Source of the DNA: a bacterium
Lineage (GTDB): Bacteria; UBP15; UBA6099; JAJRTR01
Direction: 5' to 3'
Assembly (NCBI GenBank): GCA_024278215.1
Contig: JAJRTR010000075.1
Coordinates: 1 to 12,916 of the forward strand
Length of the DNA: 12,916 bases
Each line of letters opens with the position of its first letter. The first letter of the stretch is position 1. The notes below the pieces were generated by a model, which did not search any database, was not told where the DNA came from, and was given only the letters and a program-made list of their open reading frames with translations. Below, piece after piece: positions 1 through 12,916 of the stretch. The translations under genes were made by a program, and so were the position numbers.

Positions 1-132
1 AAAACAAATAGCAAATTATAAGCAATTCAAAAAACTTACCGGCGAATGGATCGACCTATCCGTCGAACTCGCCAAGCTTCGCAAATCAGTAAAAAAGGGG
101 TAAAGTATTATCCAGAACTTGGTACTGTCCAG
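1..132 (+). mobile_element. 3' end of an insertion sequence, left copy (partial)
   Basis: Bases 14-132 are the exact reverse complement of 12798-12916, so the same element is present at both window ends in opposite orientation. The copy holds the 3' end of a reading frame (stop at 101-103) followed by a 29-bp noncoding end that finishes at about 131-132 with ACTGTCCA(G). Read inward on the other strand, the end begins TGGACAGTACC. TG...CA tips of this kind are known from IS3- and IS481-type elements, but the family is not fixed here. The element continues outside the window. No target duplication can be judged, because only the inner flank is visible. Confidence 0.8.
2..103 (+). CDS. Transposase, C-terminal fragment (5' partial)
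   Basis: An open frame enters from the window edge and ends at TAA 101-103, giving 33 residues. They include EWIDLSVELAKLRKSVKKG, a basic amphipathic helix-like tail. An identical tail is encoded on the opposite strand at 12827-12916. The position, with the stop 29 bp before the end of a duplicated element, is what makes this a transposase; the catalytic domain lies outside the window. A DDE enzyme of the IS3/IS481 type would fit the element tips, but the fragment is too short to assign a family. It points into the phage-like region. Confidence 0.6.
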   Translation, partial: KQIANYKQFKKLTGEWIDLSVELAKLRKSVKKG

Positions 133-494: not shown

Positions 495-559
495 GCGATT
501 CGGCAGTAGAGAAACAGCAACTCCGCGCGCGCGACATCCACACATACAGCATCCAGATC

Positions 560-868
560 ATGGCCGGCACACACAGCCTCGTCCCAGGCCGCGCATTCGA
601 GGACAGCGAACAAAGCGGAGCCAAAGGCATCGTCCAGCTCTGCGAAGACATCGTCGCTGTCGTACGCGACAACACATTCGGCGGCATCTTCTTCGCGCCG
701 CCGGCGGATATCACTTGCAAACTCTATGAAAACAAAAACTCCGGCGGTATCGCATGGAACGCCGGCGTTGGGGCTAAAAAAACACTGGCTAACCACCCTG
801 ATACTGCTGCCAATCGTGCATATTATGCAGCCTTCTACGCTGTCTCGGCCTTGTTCTCAGCGGGGTAA
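560..868 (+). CDS. Phage-like protein, apparently 5'-truncated
   Basis: The frame encodes 102 residues from ATG 560 but stays open back to 485, just after a stop at 482-484. The extra upstream residues (VEKQQLRARDIHTYSIQIMA) look like natural protein, and no ribosome site precedes ATG 560. The simplest reading is the 3' part of a longer gene whose start was lost at the AT-rich junction. The stretch GAKGIVQLCEDIVAVVRDN followed by a beta-rich tail loosely recalls tail-terminator proteins of the Mu gp37/lambda U kind, which precede tail chaperones in many phages. That is a weak likeness and not a firm call. The C-terminus is Ala/Tyr-rich and ends at TAA 866-868. Confidence 0.4.
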   Translation: MAGTHSLVPGRAFEDSEQSGAKGIVQLCEDIVAVVRDNTFGGIFFAPPADITCKLYENKNSGGIAWNAGVGAKKTLANHPDTAANRAYYAAFYAVSALFSAG

Positions 869-937: not shown

Positions 938-960
938 CCCGCATTTGTGAAATATGCGGG
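938..960. repeat. Hairpin repeat, copy 1
   Basis: A perfect 7-bp stem, CCCGCAT (938-944) and ATGCGGG (954-960), encloses the 9-base loop TTGTGAAAT. A second copy differing by one loop base lies at 3855-3877. Both are in noncoding gaps. There is no U-run directly after the stem, so it is not a standard terminator. It may be a REP-like element or an RNA-processing site. Confidence 0.6.
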
Positions 961-1016
961 TTATGTTCATGTCCGGACCTGCCGCCGGTGGTCTACCTCG
1001 CTCTGAACATAATTTT
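961..1016. terminator. Possible terminator between convergent genes
   Basis: The 9-base arms TTATGTTCA (961-969) and TGAACATAA (1004-1012) are a perfect inverted repeat followed by TTTT. The 34-base loop contains GACC...GGTC, which could extend pairing. It sits between the gene ending at 868 and the oppositely oriented gene ending at 1045, where a shared terminator would be expected. The long loop and short T-run make this tentative. Confidence 0.35.
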
Positions 1017-1044: not shown

Positions 1045-2331
1045 TTATGTTCGCATCCAGAGGTCGAGGAAGGGTGATTTCAGGTCGATGCGTGTGAAGC
1101 CGATGTTCTGCATTTCGAGGGTGAAGTCATCTTTGAGTTTTTCGTTTTCGGGCAGGTGCATGGGGTGCTTTTCGTCGTGTGTGAAGGAGGGCCTGGCGAG
1201 GAGCAGGCCGCCTTTGTCGAGGTGGTTGTAGAAGACTTCGCAGTAGTGTAGGGGGTTGACGAGGTGTTCGAGTACGTCGAGGGTGATGATGATGTTGTAG
1301 AGGCCGTCGAGGTGCGCGGTGTCGGGGTCGTCTGAGATTATGACGGGGATGTCGAGTCCGCGCTTTTCGAAACGCCTGCGCGCGTATTGCAGGGTTTTGC
1401 CGGGGACGTCGCAATATTCGATGTTCAGGCCCTGCTGTGCGAGCTTGATGGCGAGGTCGCCGTCGCCGCCGCCGAAGTCGAGGATGCGACCACGGAATTG
1501 ATTGCATATTTTTGTGACGATTTCTACGACGACGGGGTATGACTTGCTTGTCGCGTGATAGCCGCAGAGTCCGAATATATAGTGCTCGGTGTCGCAGTAC
1601 CATTTGTGTATTGCTTCGCTGTTTCGTGGCCGGGTTTTGTTCCAGTCGTTTGCGAGGTTCATGGTGGACCTCAATATATATTGTGTTGTTCTCCAGCGGT
1701 CGCAGTCGAGGAATTCGGCGAGTTCGCTGCACTGGTCGTAAACTTTTATGTTCTCGGGGATATAGGCGACGAGAGACTGCCTGTTTGTTTCCATTTCAGC
1801 GTGTATGCGCTGGTAATCATTTGTGATTATGTCGTCGCGGGACGTGCTGTCTACGAGATATACGGCGGAAGATGGTTCGGTTGCTGTGCGGTCTCCGAGC
1901 ACGATGTTGTCCCTGATCCAGTCTTCCTGCGCGTAGAAGAAGTCCGTCATTAAGCTGTGCAGGTTGTCTTCTCCGATGTAGAGATGAACAGATTGATTTT
2001 GCAGCAGGTCCGCGATGTCGAATCTGCACAGCGAGCGGGCGAAAGTCTCGATGCTCTGTTCGTAGATATAAATGGATTTGCCGTTAGAGGCGGCACGGGC
2101 AGCGGCATGCAGGGCTTCTCCGTCGCCGATTCCTATGAGCGCCGATAAATCATGTTGAAATGAAATGTTCTCCGCCGGCGAACTTTCGGCGTTTGCGGTG
2201 TCCCGGGCGATTTCCCCACAAATATCATGATCCGCCGATGACGCAAAGTCGACAACGGCGTTGTGCAGGGCGGGCCATTCTGCTTTCAGTGCGGACACAT
2301 TGTTTTCAAAGATGTTATTGCGCATAAGCAC
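1045..2331 (-). CDS. Two-domain protein with C-terminal class I SAM-dependent methyltransferase
   Basis: The C-terminal part carries a clear class I methyltransferase signature: motif I ILDFGGGDGDLA at about residues 281-292, an acidic strand-end residue in EYCDVPG, and a LDVLEHLVNP segment at about 351-360, as in UbiG-like and Methyltransf_23 families. These transfer a methyl group from S-adenosylmethionine. The first 270 residues are different; LIGIGDGEA and the later HLYIGED recall the N-terminal part of MAF/DUF115 glycan-linked proteins, so a sugar or surface-glycan substrate is possible but inferred. Start is GTG 2331 (428 aa) or ATG 2325 (426 aa); neither has a strong ribosome site. It is the only large gene on this strand, divergent from the tail operon, so it behaves like a separately transcribed cargo (moron) gene. 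Substrate unknown. Confidence 0.75.
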   Translation of the reverse strand: MLMRNNIFENNVSALKAEWPALHNAVVDFASSADHDICGEIARDTANAESSPAENISFQHDLSALIGIGDGEALHAAARAASNGKSIYIYEQSIETFARSLCRFDIADLLQNQSVHLYIGEDNLHSLMTDFFYAQEDWIRDNIVLGDRTATEPSSAVYLVDSTSRDDIITNDYQRIHAEMETNRQSLVAYIPENIKVYDQCSELAEFLDCDRWRTTQYILRSTMNLANDWNKTRPRNSEAIHKWYCDTEHYIFGLCGYHATSKSYPVVVEIVTKICNQFRGRILDFGGGDGDLAIKLAQQGLNIEYCDVPGKTLQYARRRFEKRGLDIPVIISDDPDTAHLDGLYNIIITLDVLEHLVNPLHYCEVFYNHLDKGGLLLARPSFTHDEKHPMHLPENEKLKDDFTLEMQNIGFTRIDLKSPFLDLWMRT

Positions 2332-2429: not shown

Positions 2430-2954
2430 ATGGGATATACGAAAGAGGGGAAGCAGGCGGAGTTGACGATGGAGCAGGCCGCGGGCGTGGAGTTTGTCGA
2501 GGTGCCGAGCGGAAGGAAGTGGCGGTTGAAGGTGTGCACGCTTGGCGGGATGTGGAAGTTCAACGAGCGGCTGGCGGCGGCGGCAGCGAGTGGTGACGAG
2601 AGGAGCTGGGTGCGGTTTATGCAGAGTTCGCTGATGTGCGCGTCGCCCGAGCCGGGGCTGATGGTGAGGGTGAGGCGGGCGCTGGGGCTGGCGGATTATT
2701 CTGCGAAGGAGATCGGCGCGTCTATCCCCGCGCGTGAGCTGCCCGCGCTTCGAGACGCTGTGCTGTGTGCGAATATCGGAATAGATTACGCGGAATTCAT
2801 TGCGAGGTGCGAGGCGGCTGTAAAAAAAAAGAGTGCGTGCGGCAGTGTACGCAACCGAAGCGACAGAAACAACGAAGAGACGACAACTGGGGAGACACGC
2901 TCGGAGCGATGCTGCTGCAGTGGGGATTGCGGCCACGGGATGTCTTCGACCTGA
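2430..2954 (+). CDS. Tail assembly chaperone, G-like short product
   Basis: The 174-residue zero-frame product has a soluble mixed alpha/beta N-terminal region (EFVEVPSGRKWRLKVCTLGG at about 24-43), then helices to about residue 133. The arrangement of this frame with the one starting inside it matches phage tail chaperones (lambda G/GT; gp14/gp15 in other siphophages), where a short protein and a frameshifted longer form bind tape-measure and tail-tube proteins during assembly. The slippery run lies at codons 132-134. The 40 residues after it (including a CCCSGDC cluster) are probably only the out-of-frame reading of the T region. ATG 2430 is preceded by AGGAGG. The assignment rests on gene architecture rather than on sequence identity. 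Confidence 0.7.
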   Translation: MGYTKEGKQAELTMEQAAGVEFVEVPSGRKWRLKVCTLGGMWKFNERLAAAAASGDERSWVRFMQSSLMCASPEPGLMVRVRRALGLADYSAKEIGASIPARELPALRDAVLCANIGIDYAEFIARCEAAVKKKSACGSVRNRSDRNNEETTTGETRSERCCCSGDCGHGMSST

Positions 2955-3076
2955 CGCTGCGGCAGCTTGAAGCGATTTGTAATTATCCGGGCAAAGATGA
3001 CGAAGCGCAAAAGGCCGAAGGCATGAGAGAGTTGCTGAAAAGAGAAGCAGAGGGGGATATCCGGAAAAGATGGTGA
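2430..3076 (+). CDS. Tail assembly chaperone, GT-like fusion made by -1 frameshift
   Basis: Reading 2430-2831 and then slipping back one base continues in the overlapping frame to TGA 3074-3076, giving about 215 residues. The added 81-residue T part is basic at first (QPKRQKQRRDD), then has WGDTLGAMLLQWGLRPRDVF and LTLRQLEAICNYPG, a W-G-P-x-D-V-[FM]-x-[LM]-T pattern usual in phage T domains. T frame has no good start of its own: its first ATG (2765) lies deep within G and has no ribosome site. In known phages the fusion is the minor product and recruits the tape-measure protein. Frameshifting is inferred from the slippery site and frames; it has not been shown experimentally here. Confidence 0.7.
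2811..2853 (+). promoter_or_regulatory. Programmed -1 ribosomal frameshift signal
   Basis: The run of nine A (2822-2830) followed by G gives the heptamer A AAA AAG at 2825-2831 in the correct zero-frame register, the same heptamer as in E. coli dnaX. A GAGG at 2811-2814 lies ten bases upstream, at a distance where an internal Shine-Dalgarno can stimulate slippage. TGCGTGC (2834-2840) can pair with GTACGCA (2847-2853) around a 6-base loop, with one G-U pair. The hairpin starts only two bases after the heptamer, closer than usual, so its role is less certain than that of the slippery run. Confidence 0.7.
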
Positions 3077-3240
3077 ATGGAGATATTGATAACGCGGAAG
3101 CGTTCAAACTGAAAGATGTTGTTTTCTTGTTTATATGCAACGAGACAGTCGTTGCATTCCAGAAATTTCAGATGTACCGTTGCGAACAGCTACCTGTGAA
3201 CGGATACGAACAAAATATCGAGGAGGAACAGATATGTTAA
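3070..3240 (+). CDS. 56-residue hypothetical protein, overlapping both neighbours
   Basis: ATG 3070 opens a 56-codon frame ending at TAA 3238-3240. It overlaps the last seven bases of the T frame and the first seven bases of the next gene (ATG 3234), a tight layout typical of translationally coupled phage genes. The product is not recognised; it has a hydrophobic centre (DVVFLFICNETVVAFQKF) and an acidic C-terminus (EQNIEEEQIC). The codons for the three Glu residues also form the ribosome binding site of the following gene. AGGGGGA at 3051-3057 is twelve bases upstream, rather far. In many siphophages a small gene sits between the chaperones and the tape measure. It could also be a chance frame, since no homologue was checked. 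Confidence 0.5.
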   Translation: MVNGDIDNAEAFKLKDVVFLFICNETVVAFQKFQMYRCEQLPVNGYEQNIEEEQIC

Positions 3241-3836
3241 AAAGTGATGGAATGTCAAACAAGCTTGAGGACATGATACGGGAGCAGGTAAGGGAGGAAA
3301 TATATCAGGTGGCCGGAGCGGAGCTTGCAATCCTGAAAGAGGCGCTGGGCGGGTCGCCGATGAAGGCGTTCGAGATGGGACTTGCGCATTACACTGCCGG
3401 ACAGACGATACAGGGAAGCAACCTGACGGCGACGGAGGCCTACGAGGGAGCAAAGAGTGTGGCTGCCAATATCGCATCGGAAAACTATATCGGCGCGGCG
3501 ATGGACCTGTACTCGATGTATACGCAGTATAAGGACGGAGTGAAGGCGCCGCTGTCGGGTGTCGACGCGATATTCGGAGAGGGGATCGATGTGAGGCAGT
3601 TGGATATTTCCACGCTTTCGCTGGGAGATATATTGAGGCGGGCGACGTTTTCGTCGCGAAACGCGGGTCACGGGCTTTACAACATGTACGAGAGGTCGCG
3701 CACAGGGGTTGACAATATGCTTGGAGGCGGCTCGGTGCGGGATTATGAGGACGCGAGCGAGGATGTCTGGGTGAAGACATCGAAGCTCAACGAGATGGCG
3801 GGCATACCGCGCCGGACGAATTTCAATCACGGGTGA
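3234..3836 (+). CDS. 200-residue helical protein in the tape-measure slot
   Basis: ATG 3234 is chosen over the ATG at 3135 because AGGAGG (3221-3226) sits seven bases before it. The first 45 residues are a charged amphipathic helix (KLEDMIREQVREEIYQVAGA); the middle is Ala/Gly/Ser-rich and helical, and the end is more polar (RRTNFNHG terminus). No TM segment or enzyme motif is seen. Its position directly after the chaperones is where siphophages keep the tape-measure gene, yet 200 residues is very short: known tape measures usually run to many hundreds of residues. It may be a minimal tape measure, an internal virion protein, or a tail completion factor. Function is unknown. Confidence 0.6.
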   Translation: MLKSDGMSNKLEDMIREQVREEIYQVAGAELAILKEALGGSPMKAFEMGLAHYTAGQTIQGSNLTATEAYEGAKSVAANIASENYIGAAMDLYSMYTQYKDGVKAPLSGVDAIFGEGIDVRQLDISTLSLGDILRRATFSSRNAGHGLYNMYERSRTGVDNMLGGGSVRDYEDASEDVWVKTSKLNEMAGIPRRTNFNHG

Positions 3837-3854
3837 ACGAAACGCAGGTAGTAA

Positions 3855-3877
3855 CCCGCATTGGTGAAATATGCGGG
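3855..3877. repeat. Hairpin repeat, copy 2
   Basis: This copy repeats the 7-bp stem CCCGCAT/ATGCGGG with loop TGGTGAAAT; it differs from copy 1 (938-960) at one loop base. It lies 18 bases after the stop of the preceding gene and 50 bases before the next start, within the operon. The conserved loop suggests selection for the RNA or DNA hairpin and not just for a stable stem. Confidence 0.6.
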
Positions 3878-3914
3878 GTAAGGTGGCATACGTGTCGTTA
3901 CAAACAACGATATC

Positions 3915-3921
3915 AAAGGAG
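3915..3921 (+). promoter_or_regulatory. Ribosome binding site fixing ATG 3928
   Basis: AAAGGAG ends six bases before ATG 3928. It rules out the earlier in-frame ATG at 3871, which lies in the second arm of the hairpin repeat and has no ribosome site. Confidence 0.75.
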
Positions 3922-3927
3922 CATGTT

Positions 3928-4530
3928 ATGAGTTATGAAACAGCAATTTATTTCAGGGTGAAAAATGAGGAGGCGACAGACGGCGGTGACGGACTGACGT
4001 TTGCGCTGCATGGTGTGAACGCGCAGGCGACGCCCGCGCCGGTTGTGTATGTGGACGGCGCGGAGGCCGACCCGGCGAGCTACACTTTCGACTACGGCGA
4101 CAGCGAAACGGCGGCTTCGATCACTTTCGAGGATTCGCGATCCGGTAGTACGGTGACCTGCGACTACAGGTGGAAGTATGAGCTGGGGCCGGAGGAGGAG
4201 CTTGCGGTCTACGAGTTCGACAGGACGATGAATGTGAAGACGCTGACGGATGTGAACGGGCGGCGGATGGTGGTCGAGAACTGCGCGAAGGTGTCGGGCT
4301 GGCAGGGCGCGCTGGCGTGGAAGTATGTGGGACAGTCGTTCTGGGAGGAATTGCGGCGGCTGGCGGAATCGGCGGACGGCTGGACGATAGATGTGGAGCG
4401 TTCGTCGCTGGGCGCGCCGCTAGACATGATAGAAAATCTTTATCCGATTTCGTATCCGAAGTTTGCCGAGAAGCCCGGTGTACCGGGCCTGACTGGTGTG
4501 ACGATGAATGTTGTGCAGATATCGTTGTGA
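3928..4530 (+). CDS. Beta-rich phage tail structural protein, 200 aa
   Basis: The protein starts MSYETAIYFRVKNEE and has a module at about residues 37-86 with VVYVDGAEADPASYTFDYG, then SITFEDSRSGSTVTCDYRW. This V-x-V-x-G ... Y-T-x-D ... G-x-I-x-F ... T-V-x-x-D-Y pattern is a small beta sandwich often seen in minor tail proteins (for example at the end of DUF2460 proteins). It recurs twice in the next gene. The C-terminal half has an aromatic helix (SFWEELRRLAESADGW) and ends in LTGVTMNVVQISL. A distal-tail or tail-tip role fits its place between the chaperone region and the giant tail protein, but is inferred from order. No signal peptide or TM segment. Confidence 0.65.
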   Translation: MSYETAIYFRVKNEEATDGGDGLTFALHGVNAQATPAPVVYVDGAEADPASYTFDYGDSETAASITFEDSRSGSTVTCDYRWKYELGPEEELAVYEFDRTMNVKTLTDVNGRRMVVENCAKVSGWQGALAWKYVGQSFWEELRRLAESADGWTIDVERSSLGAPLDMIENLYPISYPKFAEKPGVPGLTGVTMNVVQISL

Positions 4531-4629
4531 CGATATTCCGGATCGTTCGTGCCCGGATAAAAGCGGTTCGCGCACGGTGCGCGGAGGTGGATAACCGGCG
4601 TGTTAAAGTTGGCGAAAGGAGACGGAAAG
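4531..4629 (+). other. Intergenic spacer with GC-rich palindrome
   Basis: This 99-base gap contains the palindrome CGCGCAC-G-GTGCGCG at 4569-4583, which could fold with a 5-bp stem and 5-base loop. No T-run follows, so it is not a terminator. An AAAGGAG at 4615-4621, eight bases before ATG 4630, selects that start over GTG 4600. I see no gene or promoter here. Confidence 0.4.
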
Positions 4630-7600
4630 ATGAATTATACGGATGTCGCCCTGACGGGTGATCAGATAAGCGAATTGAAGAAAGGTTACAAGAAAACCGC
4701 ATGGCGCGTGAAGGCGCTGAAGGCGACCGGAAAGAAGCTGCCCGATTCCGAAACGACAAATGTGATCAAAATAGACACGGACGGCAGCGGCTCGAAATAC
4801 GAATACGACACGTTCGGGGCCGGCTATAAGAAGGTGATCCACGATACGGAGCGGAACAGGACTTTCGTGCTGCATAACAGAAAAACGAGCGAGGCGGGGG
4901 CACTTGTCAGCATTATCAATCATTATCTCGGCGAAGACCACGAGGATTTCATCGAGACGCTCGATAAGGACACTCACGCGGACGACGACCTGAAAGAAAG
5001 CAACGCTATCTATATCTGCGATATGGATTACGATCCGGCGACACAGAAACTGGCTATAAGCACGCTTTCGACAAGCGGCGCTTCGGCGGGCTTGTTTATT
5101 GTAAGTTGCAGCAAATATCTGCCTGAACTCGTCACGAACGAATGCGGCGAACTGAAGCCGAACCCGGACTATCTTTCCACGGTGTTTATAAGCCCCGGCG
5201 AAAGTTACCTGTCGAAGGGCGGCTCGTATATCAGATTTGTGAGGCGCTACGCTAACCGCTGGTACGTGTGGTGCAGGGACTACGCGACCGCTCCGGGAGA
5301 TGAATATCTGTTTTATTACCTCGGCTACCTGACGGATGCGGGGTCGTTCAAGCTGCTGATGCAGTACGGCTATGCGCCGGGAGCCGCGCCTTATGCACCG
5401 GAGACATGGTATCCGACGAGCAAGCCGATATGGCATTACGCCGAAGCCTCCGGTGACAGCGCGTGGGGCGAGCCGGCGCGGATATTCGAGGATGTGGCGA
5501 CTTTCGACATCACGGACAGCGGCAAACTTGTTATGGCGACAGAAACGAACGGACAGGCTTTCGGGATGAAACCTTTCATAACGCGCATCGACCTTGCGGA
5601 GGCGGAAAGCGGCGATCCGCTGTTGGGCACATGCAGCATAAGTATCGAAGGTGTCTACGATCCGGTCTCCCAGCTCTATAAAGTACCGCAGGGAACGACG
5701 ACGACAACGATCGAGCTGCCTGGCGCAAGGGGCTGTGTCGCCGTGAGTATTTCCGACTCGAGCACCGGAGGCGCGGCGGATGCGCATCCCGGCACGACAT
5801 TTTATTTTCAGAACAGGTTCGGCACGTCGAAGCAGGGAGCGTTTCATCCCGACGAAGAGGTTATTTCTCACATTTCTTTCTTCGCCTACAACGAAACGAT
5901 CACGATCGGGGTGGTCAACCCGAATTTGTTTTCCTCGGAAACGCCGTTCACTTTTGTCTGGGATTTCACAGTGCGAAGCATAAGCGCCGGGCTCGAGGAG
6001 TGTATCGGCGTGCACTCGACCGGCGGGCCGATTGCGCAGGAGGGCGACGATGTGATGCCGGAAACGACAGGCGAGGAGCAGTACTGGCATACATGGCAGA
6101 TCGCGAAAGTGGTGGACCCAACGCCCGCGCTTCAACCCATGAGTATCAACTCGTGCGTCTATGACGAGACACTCGACAGATATTTCTTCGCGGTGCGCGA
6201 ACCCAGTAACCGGGGCCATGGCCTGTGGGTCTATAACGCCGCGACCGCAACCGGCGCGCTCACACGTCTGAAACCCGCAGATAGCGGCCTGGCCTGCATG
6301 CACGTGGGCGCGCTCGCCGACGTCTCCGAGCGGCACATCGCGCTCGTCTGCGACGATGGCGACAGGGGCTCGCAGCTGTATAATGTCGCGGTTCAGTTTC
6401 TCGACAAATCGAGTCTGGCGTTTACCGACCGGCGATACGATGCCGCCGTACTGTGGTCCGGGGCCGCCTCGAACTCGGTTGTCTACGACGAGAAACGCAA
6501 TGTCGTCGGCATGGCCACAGGCGCTTTCTCGTCGGCATATTACACTTCGTTCGGAAACAGCGGCGAGATATGGTTCTGGAAGCCGGAGACGGTGGACGGC
6601 GAATGGACGCGCGACCCGCGTGTGTGGTGGGACGGCAACGACCCCGACATCATTGTCGGCGACAGCGCGCGGGCCGCCGACGATCTCGGACAGGGCGTGC
6701 GGCTGCTGAACCCGTCGTGGTCGCAGACGAAGGGGCGCAGCAGCTATCGCTTCAGTTTCGACACGCGCGGGGCAGCATATCTGCCGTGGGCGGAAAGTCC
6801 GTTCAATGAGAATGCCGACCTGCCGGGCTCGTTCGACGGCACGCTCCAGGACGGTACCCGGCTGTTTGTCGAGCGAGGCGTGTGGGACGGTGCGGAATGG
6901 GCGTGGATACAGGAAGGGCAGATGTTCGTTATGAGCCTGCCTGTCGCCAACACGTCGGGCGATGTGGCGATGTCGGTCACCGCCCAGGGGCCGATATCCA
7001 TGCTTGTCACCCGCGCCACTTACGACGGGTTCCACAAGCCGGAGGTCGCCACGATAACAAACGGCACACTGACGGCGGGCGAGGCGACCGAGACGGAATA
7101 TCCCTATTATTATGAGGACGGCGAAAACGGCAGGATCACCAATTGGGCCGTGAGGCCGCAGCCGGCGGTTTCGGTCGGCGGCGAGGCGGTCGCCAATTAT
7201 ACGGTCGATTGCTTCGCGGGCGCGATCATCTTCGACGAGGAGCAGACGGACACGGTCGCGGCGACTTTCGATTATTATGTTTCCGGCACCAACGAGGCCG
7301 AGGACATCATCTATTGTATACTCACATATCCACAGGAGTTCGGGGGCTGCGGACTCGACGAATCCTATATCACGAGAAAACTCGAAGGGGTGGCACTGTC
7401 GCCGATCAGCGACACCGTCTATGCGTTCCCCAAAAACAACATCAAGGCCGACAGCATGACCAATACCGTCTATCGCAACGGCGCTCCTACCCCGGCGACG
7501 TGGGACTATCGCGCCGGCACAGTCACGTTCTCCGGCTCGCAGGCGGGCCAGACGATAACCGGCGATTGTGTCTATTACACTATCCAGAAAGGCGGTGTCA

Positions 7601-8769
7601 CGCTCCCGCCGGTCAACCTGACGGTGCGGGAATTAAAGGACAGCTATCATTGCATCGACAAGGTGTGCAAGCTTGTCGCGCCGAACTACATCTTCCGCGA
7701 GGGCCGCGACGGCAGGCTCGAGAGCGACTTCTTCACCCAGAAACAGGCGGGCGAGGAGGACATCGTTGTCGACGACGACGACATCGCCGTACAGTCCTTT
7801 AACAGCAACCCATCCTACGAGGAACTCGCCACGCGGGTTATCAGCATCGGCAGCGCGAGTCTCGAAGAACGCCCCAACCATTGCCTGAACAAGGAAGTGA
7901 CAGACCTGCTGGGCGGCGAAGCCGCTGCATACGGCTGGAGCTACGGCTGGCACGAGCCCGTGCAGGTGGCCACTGTCACTGACGGCAACCCGGCGACAGG
8001 CCTTACGTCGGGCTGGGGAAACAACGATGGCTGGGGGCCTGTGAAAGACACGCTCGGTTCCGTGCCCGATGGCGTGCCGCTCATAAGTATCGACATGGAA
8101 CAGGAATACGAGATCGACACTATTATCGTGGCGCGGCCTTCGCAGCGCTCGAACGAGGGGGGCACGAATCCCGACGACGTGCAGAGCCTGTCGGTGTGGG
8201 TGTGTCAGGACAACGAAGCTTCAGAATATGTCCGGCTGATCGAGCCGTTTAAGATCATGCCCGGCGCGAATGTGAAGTTCATGGCCGGCACAAACTTTGA
8301 TGTCGGCACGCGATTCAGGTGGATTCGCGTCAACCTGCACAGCATCGGGCTCTATCTCTGGAAGCGAGGACTCGACAGCCAGATCGGTATCTCCGAAGTC
8401 CAGTGCTACCCGCCGCGCGAGATACTCGGTGAAGCGCGCCTGCAGAACGAAGACCCCGCCGAAGACCTATACGACGAACACGGCCTGCTCGACAAGTACG
8501 GCCTCATTACGCATGTCGCGCGAAGCGGGCAACCGGACACGGACCTGAATTCGAAGTCGAAGGCCGACCTCGATGCCGCCTATACGCTCAAGGAGATCGT
8601 CAGGCTCATGCGGAAGGTGGATATACGGTCGCCGTGGCTGCCGGGTATTCCTGTTTTCTCGACATTGAAAGTCACGAACGCCGCGATGGGCATCACCCGC
8701 ACATTCTTTGTCGAAGGCCGCACGTCAGGCCCCGACGGTGACTATTACACAGGTTCCACTCTGCCCTGA
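4630..8769 (+). CDS. Large tail tip/fibre protein with F5/8 type C-like domain
   Basis: The largest gene encodes 1379 residues. The first 680 or so contain spaced beta motifs with a shared YD turn (DMDYDPATQKLAIS near 131, CVYDETLDRYFFAV near 508, VVYDEKRNVVGMA near 617), which suggests a beta-propeller-like body. Two copies of the tail beta module follow at about 843-888 and 943-989. Residues about 1117-1259 resemble a discoidin/F5/8 type C domain: TDGNPATGLTSGWGNN, then ISIDMEQEYEIDTIIV, RFRWIRVNLHS and IGISEVQCYPP, the usual order of strands in that carbohydrate-binding fold. Such domains on phage tips bind surface glycans, so a receptor-binding or tail-tip role is likely. No signal peptide or catalytic motif is seen. 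Start ATG 4630 is fixed by AAAGGAG. The exact place in the virion is inferred. Confidence 0.75.
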   Translation: MNYTDVALTGDQISELKKGYKKTAWRVKALKATGKKLPDSETTNVIKIDTDGSGSKYEYDTFGAGYKKVIHDTERNRTFVLHNRKTSEAGALVSIINHYLGEDHEDFIETLDKDTHADDDLKESNAIYICDMDYDPATQKLAISTLSTSGASAGLFIVSCSKYLPELVTNECGELKPNPDYLSTVFISPGESYLSKGGSYIRFVRRYANRWYVWCRDYATAPGDEYLFYYLGYLTDAGSFKLLMQYGYAPGAAPYAPETWYPTSKPIWHYAEASGDSAWGEPARIFEDVATFDITDSGKLVMATETNGQAFGMKPFITRIDLAEAESGDPLLGTCSISIEGVYDPVSQLYKVPQGTTTTTIELPGARGCVAVSISDSSTGGAADAHPGTTFYFQNRFGTSKQGAFHPDEEVISHISFFAYNETITIGVVNPNLFSSETPFTFVWDFTVRSISAGLEECIGVHSTGGPIAQEGDDVMPETTGEEQYWHTWQIAKVVDPTPALQPMSINSCVYDETLDRYFFAVREPSNRGHGLWVYNAATATGALTRLKPADSGLACMHVGALADVSERHIALVCDDGDRGSQLYNVAVQFLDKSSLAFTDRRYDAAVLWSGAASNSVVYDEKRNVVGMATGAFSSAYYTSFGNSGEIWFWKPETVDGEWTRDPRVWWDGNDPDIIVGDSARAADDLGQGVRLLNPSWSQTKGRSSYRFSFDTRGAAYLPWAESPFNENADLPGSFDGTLQDGTRLFVERGVWDGAEWAWIQEGQMFVMSLPVANTSGDVAMSVTAQGPISMLVTRATYDGFHKPEVATITNGTLTAGEATETEYPYYYEDGENGRITNWAVRPQPAVSVGGEAVANYTVDCFAGAIIFDEEQTDTVAATFDYYVSGTNEAEDIIYCILTYPQEFGGCGLDESYITRKLEGVALSPISDTVYAFPKNNIKADSMTNTVYRNGAPTPATWDYRAGTVTFSGSQAGQTITGDCVYYTIQKGGVTLPPVNLTVRELKDSYHCIDKVCKLVAPNYIFREGRDGRLESDFFTQKQAGEEDIVVDDDDIAVQSFNSNPSYEELATRVISIGSASLEERPNHCLNKEVTDLLGGEAAAYGWSYGWHEPVQVATVTDGNPATGLTSGWGNNDGWGPVKDTLGSVPDGVPLISIDMEQEYEIDTIIVARPSQRSNEGGTNPDDVQSLSVWVCQDNEASEYVRLIEPFKIMPGANVKFMAGTNFDVGTRFRWIRVNLHSIGLYLWKRGLDSQIGISEVQCYPPREILGEARLQNEDPAEDLYDEHGLLDKYGLITHVARSGQPDTDLNSKSKADLDAAYTLKEIVRLMRKVDIRSPWLPGIPVFSTLKVTNAAMGITRTFFVEGRTSGPDGDYYTGSTLP

Positions 8770-8875: not shown

Positions 8876-9796
8876 ATGCTCAAACGTGTTGTTTCCAAAG
8901 AAGCACGAGTTATTCAGATAACACAGGATTCAAGGATGAAAGACCTCGAGGGTTCCGTGCAGATGGCGTTGCAGAGTCTTCAGGCGCAGATCGGCGGGCT
9001 GTACGCGAAGCTCGCCGAAATCGCGCCCGCTGCCGATCACGATATTGACGGCACACCCGACCCGGTCGGCGGTTCGCAGTCGACCCTGCTGCGCCTTACC
9101 AACAACAGCGGAGCGGGCCGCAACATGGGTGAAGTCGTCGTGTGGGACACGGCGCACGAGGAGTCGTTTACCACCACTACGGAATCCGGCGACAGGAATG
9201 TCATCGGCGTTGTTGCCTACGATCTTACGGACGGAACAACAGATGCAATACCGGCTGGTGAAGAGGGAATGATATGCGCCGGCGGCTTCGCCTGCGCGCT
9301 TGTGGATGCGGATGCAGGCGCGATCTCGGCAGGCGACGGCCTTGTGGCCCACTCGACTGAAGGATATGCTGCAAAAGCGCCTTCGCCCGAACACACGGGC
9401 ATATTCGCTACCGCGCTCGAATCGATATCATCGGGGCAGGGCGAGATTGCCGTCGTAGTGCGCGGCGACTCGCTTGCCGCCGCCGCTGCTATAGATTCGC
9501 TCAAAGACTTCGACCATGCCCTGTTCCGGCGCGGCGGCTACTACGCCGCGCACTACGACAACGACGGCGCTGCAACAGGCTTCTCCGGCTTCATAACGAG
9601 CGCCGCCGCATGGACCGCCCAGGATATGAGCCGGCTCATCGGCCACTGGACTTATGCCTACAGCGCTGACGGCTCACTCGTCAGTTCCGTGCATTCCGCC
9701 TTCGGCGTGGACGGAGCGGGCATAGCTACTGTCGCCCGCGCCCTGAACTATCAGTCGGGCCGCCTCGCTTCCATCATCGCCGAACTCTCAGAGTAG
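8876..9796 (+). CDS. Virion protein with N-terminal coiled coil and decoration-like beta domain
   Basis: ATG 8876 is selected over the ATG at 8834 by GGGAGGT five bases upstream; the product is 306 residues. Residues 20-48 (KDLEGSVQMALQSLQAQIGG and on) form a likely trimeric coiled coil. Residues about 70-190 are beta-rich and Gly/Ala-rich (NVIGVVAYDLTDG, GMICAGGFACALVDA, TGIFATALESISSGQGEIAV). That pattern of small buried strands ending in a hydrophobic IAVVVRG strand recalls DUF2190-like decoration or fibre-head domains. The C-terminal 90 residues (HDLF-type YYAAHYDND, GFSGFITSAAAW) are unrecognised and Ala-rich. Placed among fibre genes, it is probably a fibre or fibre-associated protein. 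The stop lies inside a terminator-like hairpin. Confidence 0.6.
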   Translation: MLKRVVSKEARVIQITQDSRMKDLEGSVQMALQSLQAQIGGLYAKLAEIAPAADHDIDGTPDPVGGSQSTLLRLTNNSGAGRNMGEVVVWDTAHEESFTTTTESGDRNVIGVVAYDLTDGTTDAIPAGEEGMICAGGFACALVDADAGAISAGDGLVAHSTEGYAAKAPSPEHTGIFATALESISSGQGEIAVVVRGDSLAAAAAIDSLKDFDHALFRRGGYYAAHYDNDGAATGFSGFITSAAAWTAQDMSRLIGHWTYAYSADGSLVSSVHSAFGVDGAGIATVARALNYQSGRLASIIAELSE

Positions 9797-9806: not shown

Positions 9807-9894
9807 CATTCCACAATATATTACGGCACTGCCGTCTGTGACGCGGCGCGCGAGCACGCTTTATGTGTCCGGCGCGCGCGGAAAGGAGCACACG
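9797..9894 (+). other. Intergenic gap before the spike cassette
   Basis: After the T-run the gap holds TATATT at 9817-9822, which could be a -10 box, but no acceptable -35 is seen. CGGCGCGCG occurs twice (9844 and 9870). AAAGGAG at 9882-9888, six bases before ATG 9895, decides that start over ATG 9838. Confidence 0.35.
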
Positions 9895-10302
9895 ATGCTT
9901 ATTATCGCACAGATACAGGAAATCAGGAACAACCTTTCACGCCTGCTCGGCAAGGTGAAAGTGACGGACGGAACACACGACATGCCCGCGATGGACGCCG
10001 CCGCTCGGCCCGGCTTCATGAAACTCACGGACGGCGAGAACACTGCGCCCGCGATGGACGCCGCCGCTCGACCCGGCTGGCAGCACACTCTGGAAATGCC
10101 GCTCGCGCAGCGCGTCGACTGGGATGCCGCCGGCACTACCTGCTACATCGGCTGGGCCGCGCCGGGCGCAGCGGGCGGCGCGGGCTCATGGCGCATAAAG
10201 AAAGTGTCGCTCTCCGGCAACGACGTCACCACCCTGTGGGCCGACGGCGACTACGACTACGACAACGTATGGGACAACAGAACGTCCCTGACTTACTCGT
10301 AA
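9895..10302 (+). CDS. Small virion-associated protein with tandem duplication
   Basis: The product is 135 residues. An N-terminal helix (IAQIQEIRNNLSRLLGKV) precedes two 21-residue repeats, KVTDGTHDMPAMDAAARPGF and KLTDGENTAPAMDAAARPGW (each plus one residue). The C-terminal 60 residues end in WRIKKVSLSGNDVTTLWADG and DNVWDNRTSLTYS. That ending matches a common pattern in short phage tail-region proteins that I know as [YI]-[IV]-G-x-A-x-P-G ... W-x-I-[KR]-[KR]-[IL] ... W-A-D-G-[DN] ... F-D-[NK]-[VI]-W-[DN]-x-R-x-[ST]-L-x-Y. These are structural rather than enzymatic and probably contribute to the fibre base or spike attachment, although the exact role is not established. ATG 9895 is chosen by its ribosome site. 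Confidence 0.7.
   Translation: MLIIAQIQEIRNNLSRLLGKVKVTDGTHDMPAMDAAARPGFMKLTDGENTAPAMDAAARPGWQHTLEMPLAQRVDWDAAGTTCYIGWAAPGAAGGAGSWRIKKVSLSGNDVTTLWADGDYDYDNVWDNRTSLTYS
9958..10083 (+). repeat. 63-bp in-frame tandem duplication
   Basis: Unit 1 (9958-10020) and unit 2 (10021-10083) share a 31-base core, 9985-10015 and 10048-10078, that differs at one position (G/A). The first parts have diverged (GTHDM versus GENTA). The repeat keeps frame and duplicates the PAMDAAARPG motif. Confidence 0.85.
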
Positions 10303-10317
10303 GGGAGGTTTACCGTT

Positions 10318-10632
10318 ATGCGTGAAATAATAGATTATGACGGCCGCGTCTTTATGGTCGCGGAGTGCGCAGGGCTGCACATCGAGAACGCGGATGTCAG
10401 GAACTGCACGCTCGATTCCGTCGAGAACGCTTTCCTCGTCAACACGATATTCACCGGAGTCACTCTGCGCGGCGTGTGGCGCAACAACAATCACCAGCAG
10501 TTCGCCCCCTGCTGCATATTCCATAACTGCACGTTCGAGCAGGGGCAGCGGCATGTCGAGTCGGACTTCATGAATGTGCTCGATATGAACCTGGCCGAAA
10601 CACAAAACTGCATGAACGAGGTGGACTTCTGA
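10318..10632 (+). CDS. Pentapeptide-like small beta-helical protein coupled to the tailspike
   Basis: This 104-residue protein starts at ATG 10318, eight bases after GGGAGGT. Its centre contains repeats of five-residue periodicity with a hydrophobic or Cys middle position: ADVRN CTLDS, TIFTG VTLRG, CIFHN CTFEQ. These resemble imperfect pentapeptide repeats, which build a square right-handed beta helix. There are four Cys residues and no signal peptide. TGA 10630-10632 overlaps the next ATG (TGATG), so it is translationally coupled to the beta-helix spike. A cap, adaptor or folding partner for that spike is a reasonable inference, but no known family was recognised with certainty. Confidence 0.6.
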   Translation: MREIIDYDGRVFMVAECAGLHIENADVRNCTLDSVENAFLVNTIFTGVTLRGVWRNNNHQQFAPCCIFHNCTFEQGQRHVESDFMNVLDMNLAETQNCMNEVDF

Positions 10633-12482
10633 TGGCTGCTTTTACTTCAATACAAAACGGCGACTGGAACGATTCCGCGACATGGGGCGGCTCGAATTAT
10701 CCGTTCGAAACTTCGGCGTCCGATACTGTCACAATCGCCCATAACGTGACCGTCACGTCCGGGAATCCGAACGCCGGAACAGGTGCGGTCACGGTCGGCT
10801 TGGGCGGCAATATGATCGTCGACGCCGCCTGCGACACGCAATCTTTCTGCGGCGCGATCACTGTAAACAACGGCGGCACGCTGTCGAGCAACGACGACAC
10901 GGACACGAAGGAACTGCGCGTCACGGGCAGTGTCACCGTCAAAAGCGGCGGCACGCTCGACCTCAAGCGAAAAACCACACTCCGCTTCCTATGCTCTTCT
11001 TCAGGACAATACGGCCTCGATCTCAAAAGCGGCCATCGCTGCACCCTCGAAGGCACTGACACAGACAACCGCGACTGTATCCTTCGCGGTGACGGGGCGG
11101 GAAAGGAAACATGGATCAGGGTTCTTTGCGAGGATATGAAGACACGCGACGACTGGCGGAATGTTACCTGCGATTACCTGTCGCGCTACGACGCTACTTA
11201 CTGTGCCGGCATAAGTTTATATTACGCCAACAGGTACGGCGACCATTCGATTATCTCGAACGTGACGATGTCGAACTGCATCGAACACGGCCTGTTGCTG
11301 CGCTACTCGAACACTGTAGCCGATTGGGGACAGATGGCGATACCTGTCGCCGCCGGGAAGTATGGTTTATACGTGCAGAACTCGTCGTGCGGAGGCGGCA
11401 CATGGGACATAACCGGCACGTCGGGCAGAGGCGTGTATCTCGAAAAATCGCATGTCGCCGGCGGCAAATTCAATGTCGACATGACAGGCGGCAGCGGCAA
11501 CCCGCTGTACTCGGTTTATTCGACAATCAGCGGCGGCGCGTTCGATCTGGACTCGGCAAACGGACACGGTTTCTATGCGCGTTACAACACCGTCGTCGCG
11601 GGCGGCGTGTTCGACATCGACACCGCCTCCGGCTACGCGCTGCACTCCGACGCAGCCACCTTCACAGGCGGCAACATCGACGCCGCAACAACTTCAAACC
11701 GCACCGTCTACCTGATAAACCACTGCCTCATCGACGGCTGCTCCCTAACCGCGAGCGCCACCGCCGACGGCTACTACGCCTTTCGTTTCGAGAATCCCGG
11801 CATCCGGTTCGTTTCCGGCGCGCTCGCCGTCGAGTCAGCGCAATACGGCGTTGCATGCTATTTCGGCGCAGCCGAGAGCGTGTTCCGGCACAGTGCCGAA
11901 AAGCATCTTATTATAAAAGCCTCGAACTCCGACTGGTATAACAACCACGTCCATTGCATCGAGCCACGCATCTATATCACGGACGATACAAACAGAAAGT
12001 TCAAAATCCACTTCGGCTGCTTTCCCCGCAACCGGGACGACTTCACTGTGACTGGCGGCACAGTCGACTGGGACACTACGCGCGGCTCGTTCTACGTGCC
12101 CGCGGGCTGCACGGTCGAGTTCCCCGAAGCCGCGCCCTGGCAGGTGTCGCAGTGGGGTACGATAAACTTCACGACCGCCGGCGCGGGCGCGTCATTCACC
12201 TGGGAGTACGCCCTGTCGAACGACGGCGGCGCGACCTATTCCGCATGGACACAGGTCGCGAGCGGCGCGGACCTGTCGACCCTCGAAGCCGGTGGCAACG
12301 GGCTCGACAGACTGAAAATCCGCGTCACGGTTTCCGGGGCGACAGGCGAGATACAGGAAGCCGCAATTACCGGCAATTACTACACGGACATCGACGGGCC
12401 GGTCGCGCGCAATTGGCTCCTGCCAGAATACGAGCCGATATCGCAGTTGCCCGCCGGTGACAACTACTGGATGAGATTCTGA
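10632..12482 (+). CDS. Tailspike-like protein: G8-like N-terminus, right-handed beta-helix, beta-sandwich C-terminus
   Basis: The product is 616 residues. The N-terminus (SIQNGDWNDSATWGG, then SDTVTIAHNVTVTSG) matches the start of G8-type domains. Residues about 245-385 show regular 22-24 residue rungs ending in GG: TWDITGTSGRGVYLEKSHVA, AFDLDSANGHGFYARYNTVV, VFDIDTASGYALHSDAATFT, each followed by GG or close to it. This is a parallel beta-helix as in pectate-lyase-like tailspikes. Residues about 495-590 (FTWEYALSNDGGATYSAWTQ) form a beta-sandwich, FN3-like region. The C-terminus ends in NYWMRF. Beta-helix spikes commonly bind or cut host polysaccharide; no catalytic residues can be named here. 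The start overlaps the previous stop by one base and has GAGGTGG seven bases upstream. Confidence 0.75.
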   Translation: MAAFTSIQNGDWNDSATWGGSNYPFETSASDTVTIAHNVTVTSGNPNAGTGAVTVGLGGNMIVDAACDTQSFCGAITVNNGGTLSSNDDTDTKELRVTGSVTVKSGGTLDLKRKTTLRFLCSSSGQYGLDLKSGHRCTLEGTDTDNRDCILRGDGAGKETWIRVLCEDMKTRDDWRNVTCDYLSRYDATYCAGISLYYANRYGDHSIISNVTMSNCIEHGLLLRYSNTVADWGQMAIPVAAGKYGLYVQNSSCGGGTWDITGTSGRGVYLEKSHVAGGKFNVDMTGGSGNPLYSVYSTISGGAFDLDSANGHGFYARYNTVVAGGVFDIDTASGYALHSDAATFTGGNIDAATTSNRTVYLINHCLIDGCSLTASATADGYYAFRFENPGIRFVSGALAVESAQYGVACYFGAAESVFRHSAEKHLIIKASNSDWYNNHVHCIEPRIYITDDTNRKFKIHFGCFPRNRDDFTVTGGTVDWDTTRGSFYVPAGCTVEFPEAAPWQVSQWGTINFTTAGAGASFTWEYALSNDGGATYSAWTQVASGADLSTLEAGGNGLDRLKIRVTVSGATGEIQEAAITGNYYTDIDGPVARNWLLPEYEPISQLPAGDNYWMRF

Positions 12483-12771: not shown

Positions 12772-12822
12772 ATGAAAAAGCGAGATGTTTATGTGATCTG
12801 GACAGTACCAAGTTCTGGATAA
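12772..12822 (+). pseudogene. 5' end of a gene interrupted by the right-hand IS
   Basis: ATG 12772 has GGAG (12760-12763) eight bases upstream, a spacing as good as the intact neighbours. Codons 1-9 or so read MKKRDVYVI; the frame then runs into the IS end at about 12798 and stops at TAA 12820-12822 after 16 residues. The position after an XhlA-like gene is where phages usually keep the endolysin, so this may be its remnant, but ten codons cannot identify the product. The rest of the gene, if it survives, is on the far side of the IS. Confidence 0.5.
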
Positions 12823-12916
12823 TACTTTACCCCTTTTTTACTGATTTGCGAAGCTTGGCGAGTTCGACGGATAGGTCGATCCATTCGCCGGTAAGTTTTT
12901 TGAATTGCTTATAATT
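12798..12916 (-). mobile_element. 3' end of an insertion sequence, right copy (partial)
   Basis: The whole 119 bases are the reverse complement of 14-132 without a mismatch. The inner tip begins (C)TGGACAGTACC. The two copies face each other with their 3' ends inward and enclose 12,665 bp. Identity over the visible length means either recent transposition or the same repeat at both contig ends; the element continues outside. Confidence 0.8.
12827..12916 (-). CDS. Transposase, C-terminal fragment (5' partial), right copy
   Basis: Read on the minus strand, 29 codons enter from the window edge and end at TAA (12829-12827). The residues are identical to those encoded by 14-100 at the left end, including LSVELAKLRKSVKKG. 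Same family caveat as for the left copy: the catalytic part is not visible. Confidence 0.6.
   Translation of the reverse strand, partial: NYKQFKKLTGEWIDLSVELAKLRKSVKKG

What the first reader, a model, noticed from the sequence alone, without database searches (positions are those of the whole stretch)
3077..4629. No long tape-measure gene after the tail chaperones
In siphophages and myophages the G/GT pair is followed by a tape-measure gene of many hundreds of codons that sets tail length. Here only 56-, 200- and 200-residue products separate it from the tip protein. Either the 200-residue helical protein is a very small tape measure (a very short tail), the real one was deleted or moved, or the chaperone serves another assembly. 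This is the most unusual aspect of the gene order.
Basis: partly seen in the sequence, partly recalled or inferred. Interest (0 to 1): 0.6.

Follow-up and report, generated by a model that had tools for sequence, protein, structure and literature searches.

The report
Miniature tape measure, likely gene-transfer agent
The missing long ruler gene of this phage-like tail is really present as a very short (200-residue) version, matching only the tail end of rulers of 900 to 1,400 residues in related viruses, and its relatives sit as conserved, virus-derived gene sets in bacterial chromosomes that look like gene-transfer agents with stubby tails.

Summary
After the G/GT chaperone pair (A9 slippery site at 2822-2830) there is no long tape-measure gene, only a 200-residue product (3234-3836); the 56-residue ORF has no relatives. 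The 200-residue product is best read as the tape measure itself in miniature. A profile built from it and three counterparts matches only the C-terminal ~130-240 residues of four tape-measure proteins of 804 (partial) to 1372 residues. One is in an IMG/VR phage contig with the same gene order (tube, G, 1372-residue tape measure, distal-tail, tip). Three other MAGs of the same small phylum carry the same locus with tape measures of 199-215 residues, so this is an old, shared shortening, not a fresh deletion. In two of them the gene is under purifying selection (dN/dS 0.15; terminase, portal and capsid 0.04-0.06). Head, tail and lysis genes lie between host genes, terminase and portal at a second locus, each single copy, with no integrase found. 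This resembles a gene-transfer agent; the R. capsulatus agent also has a tape measure of ~216 residues and a 49-nm tail. Particles, DNA cargo and function are unproven. The window's own copy is broken up by insertions and may be decaying.

The parts
1..132 (+). Dispersed insertion-sequence-like repeat (end fragment); exact inverted copy at 12798-12916, so the contig was cut at two copies
   Evidence: blastn of window on itself: 14-132 = 12916-12798 at 100%; 15 matches in the own genome
526..770 (+). Broken copy of a small neck/tail-terminator-like gene that lies after the tail tube gene on contig C35 of the same genome
   Evidence: 96.7% DNA identity to C35 10629-10873; intact paralogues on C35 match a relative's 179-aa gene upstream of the tube gene; role inferred from position
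1045..2331 (-). Methyltransferase-domain protein, inserted antisense between neck/tube genes and G; cargo, not part of the tail
   Evidence: Pfam PF13489 1e-10; no relative of it in the compared loci of G001, G003, G005
2430..2954 (+). Tail assembly chaperone G
   Evidence: 41% and 38% identity to the gene between tail tube and short tape measure in G001 and G003
2765..3076 (+). T part of the GT chaperone, read by -1 frameshift
   Evidence: 33% identity to the T frames of relatives; DWGD..GAMLL motif shared
2822..2830 (+). A9 slippery site for the -1 shift from G to GT
   Evidence: Same A9 run in the same phase in window, G001 and G003
3234..3836 (+). Miniature tape-measure protein, 200 aa
   Evidence: Homologous to 199-215-aa proteins at the same place in three genomes and to the C-terminus of 804- to 1372-aa tape measures
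3928..4530 (+). Distal-tail (Dit-like) protein, 200 aa; matches the C-terminal part of a 359-aa phage protein at the same place
   Evidence: 50-54% identity in relatives; 40% to residues ~160-346 of the product of L121 9524-10603; Dit role inferred from position
4600..8769 (+). Large tail-tip protein, 1389 aa (start may be 4630)
   Evidence: 42% identity over full length to 1387-aa protein in G005; 30% over 1441 columns to 1367-aa phage protein, E 4e-157
8876..9796 (+). Tail protein downstream of tip (fibre or fibre-attachment, role inferred)
   Evidence: 37-43% identity in three relatives; phage counterpart in L121
9895..10302 (+). Small protein of the tail cluster with a conserved N-terminus
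   Evidence: 76% identity over 51 residues in G001/G003
10632..12482 (+). Parallel-beta-type tail-spike-like protein, 616 aa
   Evidence: Weak Pfam Cthe_2159 and G8 matches; 28% identity, E 1e-44, to 720-aa protein in phage contig L121
12484..12723 (+). Small protein with one hydrophobic segment, holin-like (role inferred)
   Evidence: 56-57% identity in three relatives, where an M15 peptidase gene follows

Best explanation
The 200-residue protein at 3234-3836 is the tape measure of a very short, non-contractile tail. It corresponds to the C-terminal ~200 residues of the long tape measures of related phages, the end that (in TP901-1) anchors to the Dit/tip complex; the long length-setting part is gone. 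G/GT would still load it as the tube polymerises, and polymerisation would stop after only a few rings (estimate 2-5 rings, 10-20 nm of tube; inferred). The tail belongs to a virus-derived element fixed in the chromosomes of this bacterial lineage: head + tail + lysis genes at one locus, terminase + portal at another, inherited vertically and kept under purifying selection. I think it most likely that the element makes gene-transfer-agent-like particles that package and deliver host DNA. Shown: homology, gene order, conservation, selection in relatives. Inferred: tail length, particle formation, DNA packaging, activity of the window's own copy.
For: Profile of the four short proteins hits only the C-termini of long tape measures: L015 583-804 (4e-40), L017 678-916 (1e-37), L016 778-911 (8e-25), L121 1184-1345 of 1372 (4e-9); best of 500 shuffles 0.2. 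L121's 1372-aa protein is a PHROG tape measure (1.5e-32) in the same gene order. Same locus with 199-215-aa products in G001, G003, G005. G003 vs G001 dN/dS: TMP 0.15, Dit 0.14, tip 0.15, tube 0.16, terminase 0.06, portal 0.04, capsid 0.04. Head genes upstream in relatives; terminase and portal elsewhere; capsid and terminase each one per genome in 5 of 7 (G005's capsid is split over two contig ends). G003:C30 flanked by host metabolic genes, no integrase among scanned ORFs; host flank shared with G001. M15 lysis-type peptidase in cluster. RcGTA: tape measure 113+83+20 residues, 49-nm tail, five tube rings (PMC7296036). TP901-1: tail length falls linearly with tape-measure deletion, zero at 127 aa (PMC5099701).
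Against: No particle, packaged DNA or transfer has been seen. AlphaFold models of the tape measure and Dit-like protein were useless (pLDDT 39 and 36). In the window's genome the cluster is spread over contigs C35, C36, C45 and C49 with insertions, and no relative of the M15 peptidase was found, so this copy may be decaying; dS to the other species is near saturation, so selection on the window's own tape measure could not be measured. The short tape measures are not shown to be one clade (AU p 0.35), so shortening could have occurred more than once or been exchanged with prophages. G005 has no G/GT between tube and tape measure.
Confidence: 0.68

Rival explanations
1. It is a short-tailed but otherwise ordinary temperate or transposable siphophage whose tape measure is naturally small; the split between contigs is an assembly effect.
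For: Gene order protease - capsid - adaptor - tube - chaperone - tape measure is that of B3-like phages (JBD67); capsid nearest to such phages at 27-29% identity.
Against: In G003 the whole head-tail cluster sits mid-contig in 47 kb flanked by host genes, with terminase and portal on other contigs; no integrase or transposase found; capsid and terminase one copy per genome where found, divergence following relatedness.
Confidence: 0.15
2. The element is a decayed prophage; the short tape measure is a deletion remnant without function.
For: The window's genome shows insertions, a partial tube duplicate, broken neck-gene copies and no M15 peptidase. A related phage contig has the long version.
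Against: Shared by four genomes; purifying selection on tape measure, tail and head genes between G001 and G003; intact 1389-codon tip frame in the window.
Confidence: 0.12
3. Headless tail particle (tailocin-like) rather than a DNA-delivering particle.
For: The window itself holds only tail genes.
Against: Capsid, head protease and head-tail adaptor lie directly upstream of the tail genes in G003, the capsid gene is on C35 of the window's genome, and terminase and portal are conserved in the same genomes.
Confidence: 0.05
4. The real tape measure was moved elsewhere in the genome or is encoded as two genes.
For: The short protein lacks the long-helix part that normally sets length.
Against: A 915-aa tape measure used as query finds only the short C-terminal gene in G000 and G003; other loci have the same short gene. 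N-terminal parts are poorly conserved, so a diverged piece could be missed.
Confidence: 0.06

Closest known systems
RcGTA of Rhodobacter capsulatus (PMC7296036)
   Same: Tape measure of about 216 residues, distal-tail protein, very large tip (megatron) protein, short non-contractile tail, host-encoded and vertically inherited
   Different: No sequence match of these tape-measure or Dit-like profiles to any PDB chain; capsid is nearest to B3-like and related phages here; terminase and portal lie apart from the head-tail cluster here
B3-like transposable siphophages (Beetrevirus, e.g. JBD67)
   Same: Order protease - capsid - head-tail adaptor - tail tube - chaperone - tape measure; capsid 29% identical
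   Different: They carry transposase, lysogeny genes, adjacent terminase and portal, and a tape-measure region of about 3.2 kb
IMG/VR contig IMGVR_UViG_3300014656_000033 (L121)
   Same: Co-linear tail module: tube, G, tape measure, distal tail, tip (30% over 1441 columns), spike-like protein
   Different: Tape measure 1372 aa and Dit-like 359 aa instead of 200 and 200; no match to the capsid, portal or terminase of this element within the fetched 20.6 kb
Tape-measure deletion mutants of lactococcal phage TP901-1 (PMC5099701)
   Same: Removing the central ruler part while keeping the ends still gives tails, proportionally shorter
   Different: Laboratory mutants; TP901-1 also needs its N-terminal 154 residues for infectivity, which have no recognisable counterpart here

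Membership tests
Tape-measure protein | Homology to known tape measures | tested here: met
   Profile match to C-termini of long tape measures, one of them a PHROG tape measure
Tape-measure protein | Gene position after G/GT and before the distal-tail/tip genes | tested here: met
   Window and two relatives have the full order; G005 lacks G/GT
Tape-measure protein | Long helical ruler region of hundreds of residues | tested here: not met
   Only 199-215 residues; corresponds to the C-terminal part. RcGTA's accepted tape measure fails this too, so it lowers 'typical tape measure', not 'tape measure'
Tape-measure protein | Sets tail length in the particle | not testable with these tools
   Needs electron microscopy and mutants
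Gene-transfer agent | Phage structural genes resident in the chromosome, single copy, vertically inherited | tested here: met
   Capsid and terminase one per genome in 5 of 7; shared host flanks; identities follow relatedness
Gene-transfer agent | Purifying selection on structural and packaging genes | tested here: met
   dN/dS 0.04-0.24 for head, tail and packaging genes in G001 vs G003, except head protease 0.34 and small genes up to 0.42; not measurable for the window's own genome
Gene-transfer agent | No integration or replication genes with the cluster | tested here: inconclusive
   None among the ORFs scanned around the G003 cluster, but several small ORFs have no family and the genomes are draft MAGs
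Gene-transfer agent | Particles package mostly random host DNA and deliver it | not testable with these tools
   Needs particle purification and sequencing of packaged DNA
RcGTA family proper | Homology to RcGTA structural proteins | tested here: inconclusive
   No match of the tape-measure and Dit-like profiles to PDB chains; RcGTA's tape measure has no atomic model, and the other RcGTA proteins were not compared directly
B3-like transposable phage | Transposase, and terminase-portal next to head genes | tested here: not met
   Terminase and portal at a separate locus; no transposase found near the cluster

The most novel reading that the evidence does not exclude
A previously undescribed gene-transfer agent of a small, uncultured bacterial phylum, evolved independently from a siphophage ancestor with a B3-like head, which like RcGTA has cut its tape measure to about 200 residues: tail shortening would be a recurring step when a phage is turned into a gene-transfer agent.
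Probability: 0.45. Interest if true: 0.75.

Novelty: new variant of a known kind. Interest (0 to 1): 0.58.

Why it matters
Long and miniature forms of one tape-measure family occur in the same bacterial lineage and in a phage contig with the same tail order. This is a natural experiment on what a tape measure needs at minimum: the C-terminal anchor to the tip seems enough. If the element is a gene-transfer agent, it adds an apparently independent origin outside Alphaproteobacteria and suggests that shrinking the tail is part of domestication.

Tried and rejected
Structure prediction of the tape measure and the Dit-like protein from 7 and 4 sequences gave no usable model, so no fold search was run. 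Single-sequence scans of viral contigs with window proteins found nothing; the tape-measure alignment also found nothing there, but the Dit-like alignment found the decisive phage contig. PDB profile searches gave no credible match. The G023 match to the tape measure (E 2e-4) was rejected: that locus holds host methionine-cycle genes. A 26-base hairpin repeat at 938 and 3855, at first a candidate regulon mark because it is on all four contigs of the element, is a genome-wide repeat with 191 matches. The 56-aa ORF was rejected as a gene. A tree of the C-terminal region could not decide whether short forms are one clade.

Full report
What was checked. The window is a complete 12,916-base contig (C45) of a 4.55-Mb draft genome in 207 contigs. 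Its two ends are exact inverted copies of an insertion-sequence-like repeat with 15 matches in the genome, so the contig ends where the assembler met that repeat. The 56-residue ORF has no counterpart in relatives. The G/GT reading is sound: an A9 run at 2822-2830 in the right phase is found in the same place in two relatives, and the T part carries a shared DWGD..GAMLL-type motif.

What the 200-residue protein is. In genomes of the same order it has relatives of two sizes: proteins of 199-215 residues at the same place (G001, G003, G005) and proteins of 804 (cut by the contig end), 915 and 916 (cut) residues in other loci of G001 and G005, whose C-terminal ~110 residues match. Tube and G gene relatives precede the 915-residue one. 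A profile of the four short proteins finds only the C-terminal part of the long ones, with E-values from 4e-40 to 4e-9 against 0.2 for the best of 500 shuffles. The weakest of these matches is the decisive one: IMG/VR contig IMGVR_UViG_3300014656_000033 (L121), found through the Dit-like protein, has tube, G, a 1372-residue protein, Dit-like, tip and spike-like genes in the same order. The 1372-residue protein is a PHROG tape measure (1.5e-32) and its tube is phrog_290, like the relatives' tube. The short protein therefore sits where the tape measure sits and is homologous to its C-terminal end. The Dit-like protein is shortened in the same way: its 200 residues match only the C-terminal part of the phage's 359.

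Where it lives. In G003 (bacterium ADurb.Bin236, contig MWCD01000030; names) the tail genes follow head genes: protease (phrog_976, 1e-32), major head protein (phrog_1005, 2e-64), head-tail adaptor (PF07030), tail tube (phrog_290; the G005 tube is PF18906). Downstream are a small one-helix protein and an M15 peptidase of lysis type. Both sides are host genes: melibiase, oxidoreductases and M28 peptidase on one side, MFS transporter, GH20, beta-propeller and Mur ligase on the other, and the second flank is shared with G001. Portal and large terminase are together at a second locus. The phylum as held has only seven genomes; capsid and terminase are found once per genome in five of them, the G005 capsid being split over two contig ends. 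The window's genome has the capsid and tube on C35, the portal on C36 and the terminase on C49.

Selection. Between G003 and G001, dN/dS is 0.06 for terminase, 0.04 for portal and capsid, 0.16 for tube, 0.24 for G, 0.15 for the short tape measure, 0.14 for the Dit-like protein and 0.15 for the tip. Some genes are less constrained: the head protease (0.34, compared over three quarters of its length), the small neck gene and a small gene beside the terminase (both 0.42). Synonymous divergence is 0.03-0.24 for the main genes. These are working genes, inherited with the host, not remnants. For the window's own copy synonymous change is near saturation, so selection cannot be measured there.

How it most likely works. 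Known from other phages: G/GT chaperones bind the tape measure, whose C-terminus joins the Dit/tip initiator and whose length sets the number of tube rings. In TP901-1 the tail shortens linearly with deletions and extrapolates to no tail at 127 residues (PMC5099701). That line gives roughly 11 nm for 200 residues (my arithmetic, taking the TP901-1 protein as about 937 residues from memory). RcGTA, with 113+83+20 residues, has five tube rings and a 49-nm tail including its baseplate (PMC7296036). I infer a stub of 2-5 rings. Since head, packaging and lysis genes are conserved but no gene for integration or replication was found, the most likely product is a gene-transfer-agent-like particle. 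That last step is inference.

Reservations. No particle has been seen. The genomes are draft MAGs. In the window's genome the cluster is scattered and invaded: antisense methyltransferase at 1045-2331, a SIR2-domain gene and a glycosyltransferase on C35, duplicated tube and neck genes, no M15 peptidase. Antisense methyltransferase insertions also occur inside the head operon of G001, G003 and G006, so insertion alone does not prove decay. Whether short forms arose once is open (AU p 0.35). The CDS starts of the tip (4600 or 4630) and small genes are uncertain.

Verdict. A miniature tape measure has a known parallel in RcGTA. The wider element looks like a new, apparently unrelated gene-transfer-agent-like system in an uncultured lineage.

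Noticed in passing
window 938-963 and 3855-3880: A 26-base imperfect palindrome (CCCGCATTTGTGAAATATGCGGG) with 191 matches genome-wide and none for the reversed control pattern; a REP-like dispersed element, also present on contigs C35, C36 and C49.
   Followed up: yes
L020 (G000:C35) 6588-7580, 7626-8099, 9858-10304, 10405-10905, 12888-13275; window 526-770: Repeated duplication of the tail tube and neck/terminator-like genes in the window's genome: three neck paralogues, a partial tube copy at 92% and a broken neck copy in the window.
   Followed up: partly
L020 3670-4914 and 1666-2715: SIR2-like domain gene (antisense) and a family-9 glycosyltransferase gene inserted within the head-tail gene order, alongside the window's antisense methyltransferase: possible cargo genes.
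   Followed up: no
L012 3808-4665, L074 7821-8678, L075 5453-6310: A methyltransferase gene antisense inside the head operon, kept at the same place in three relatives.
   Followed up: no
L045, L046, L047 (terminase-portal block): The block is flanked by about 145-base direct repeats that recur elsewhere on the same contigs.
   Followed up: no
L013 (G005:C113) around 14836-14839: No G/GT chaperone genes between tail tube and short tape measure, unlike the window, G001 and G003.
   Followed up: partly
L015, L017 (G005:C283, C12): Long tape measures followed directly by a small gene and (L017) a tyrosine integrase rather than tail-tip genes; last 108 residues 89% identical while the rest diverges.
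   Followed up: no
L021 1217-1960 (G003:C30): Protein with a Shedu SduA C-terminal domain and a sigma-70 region 4 domain near the G003 cluster.
   Followed up: no
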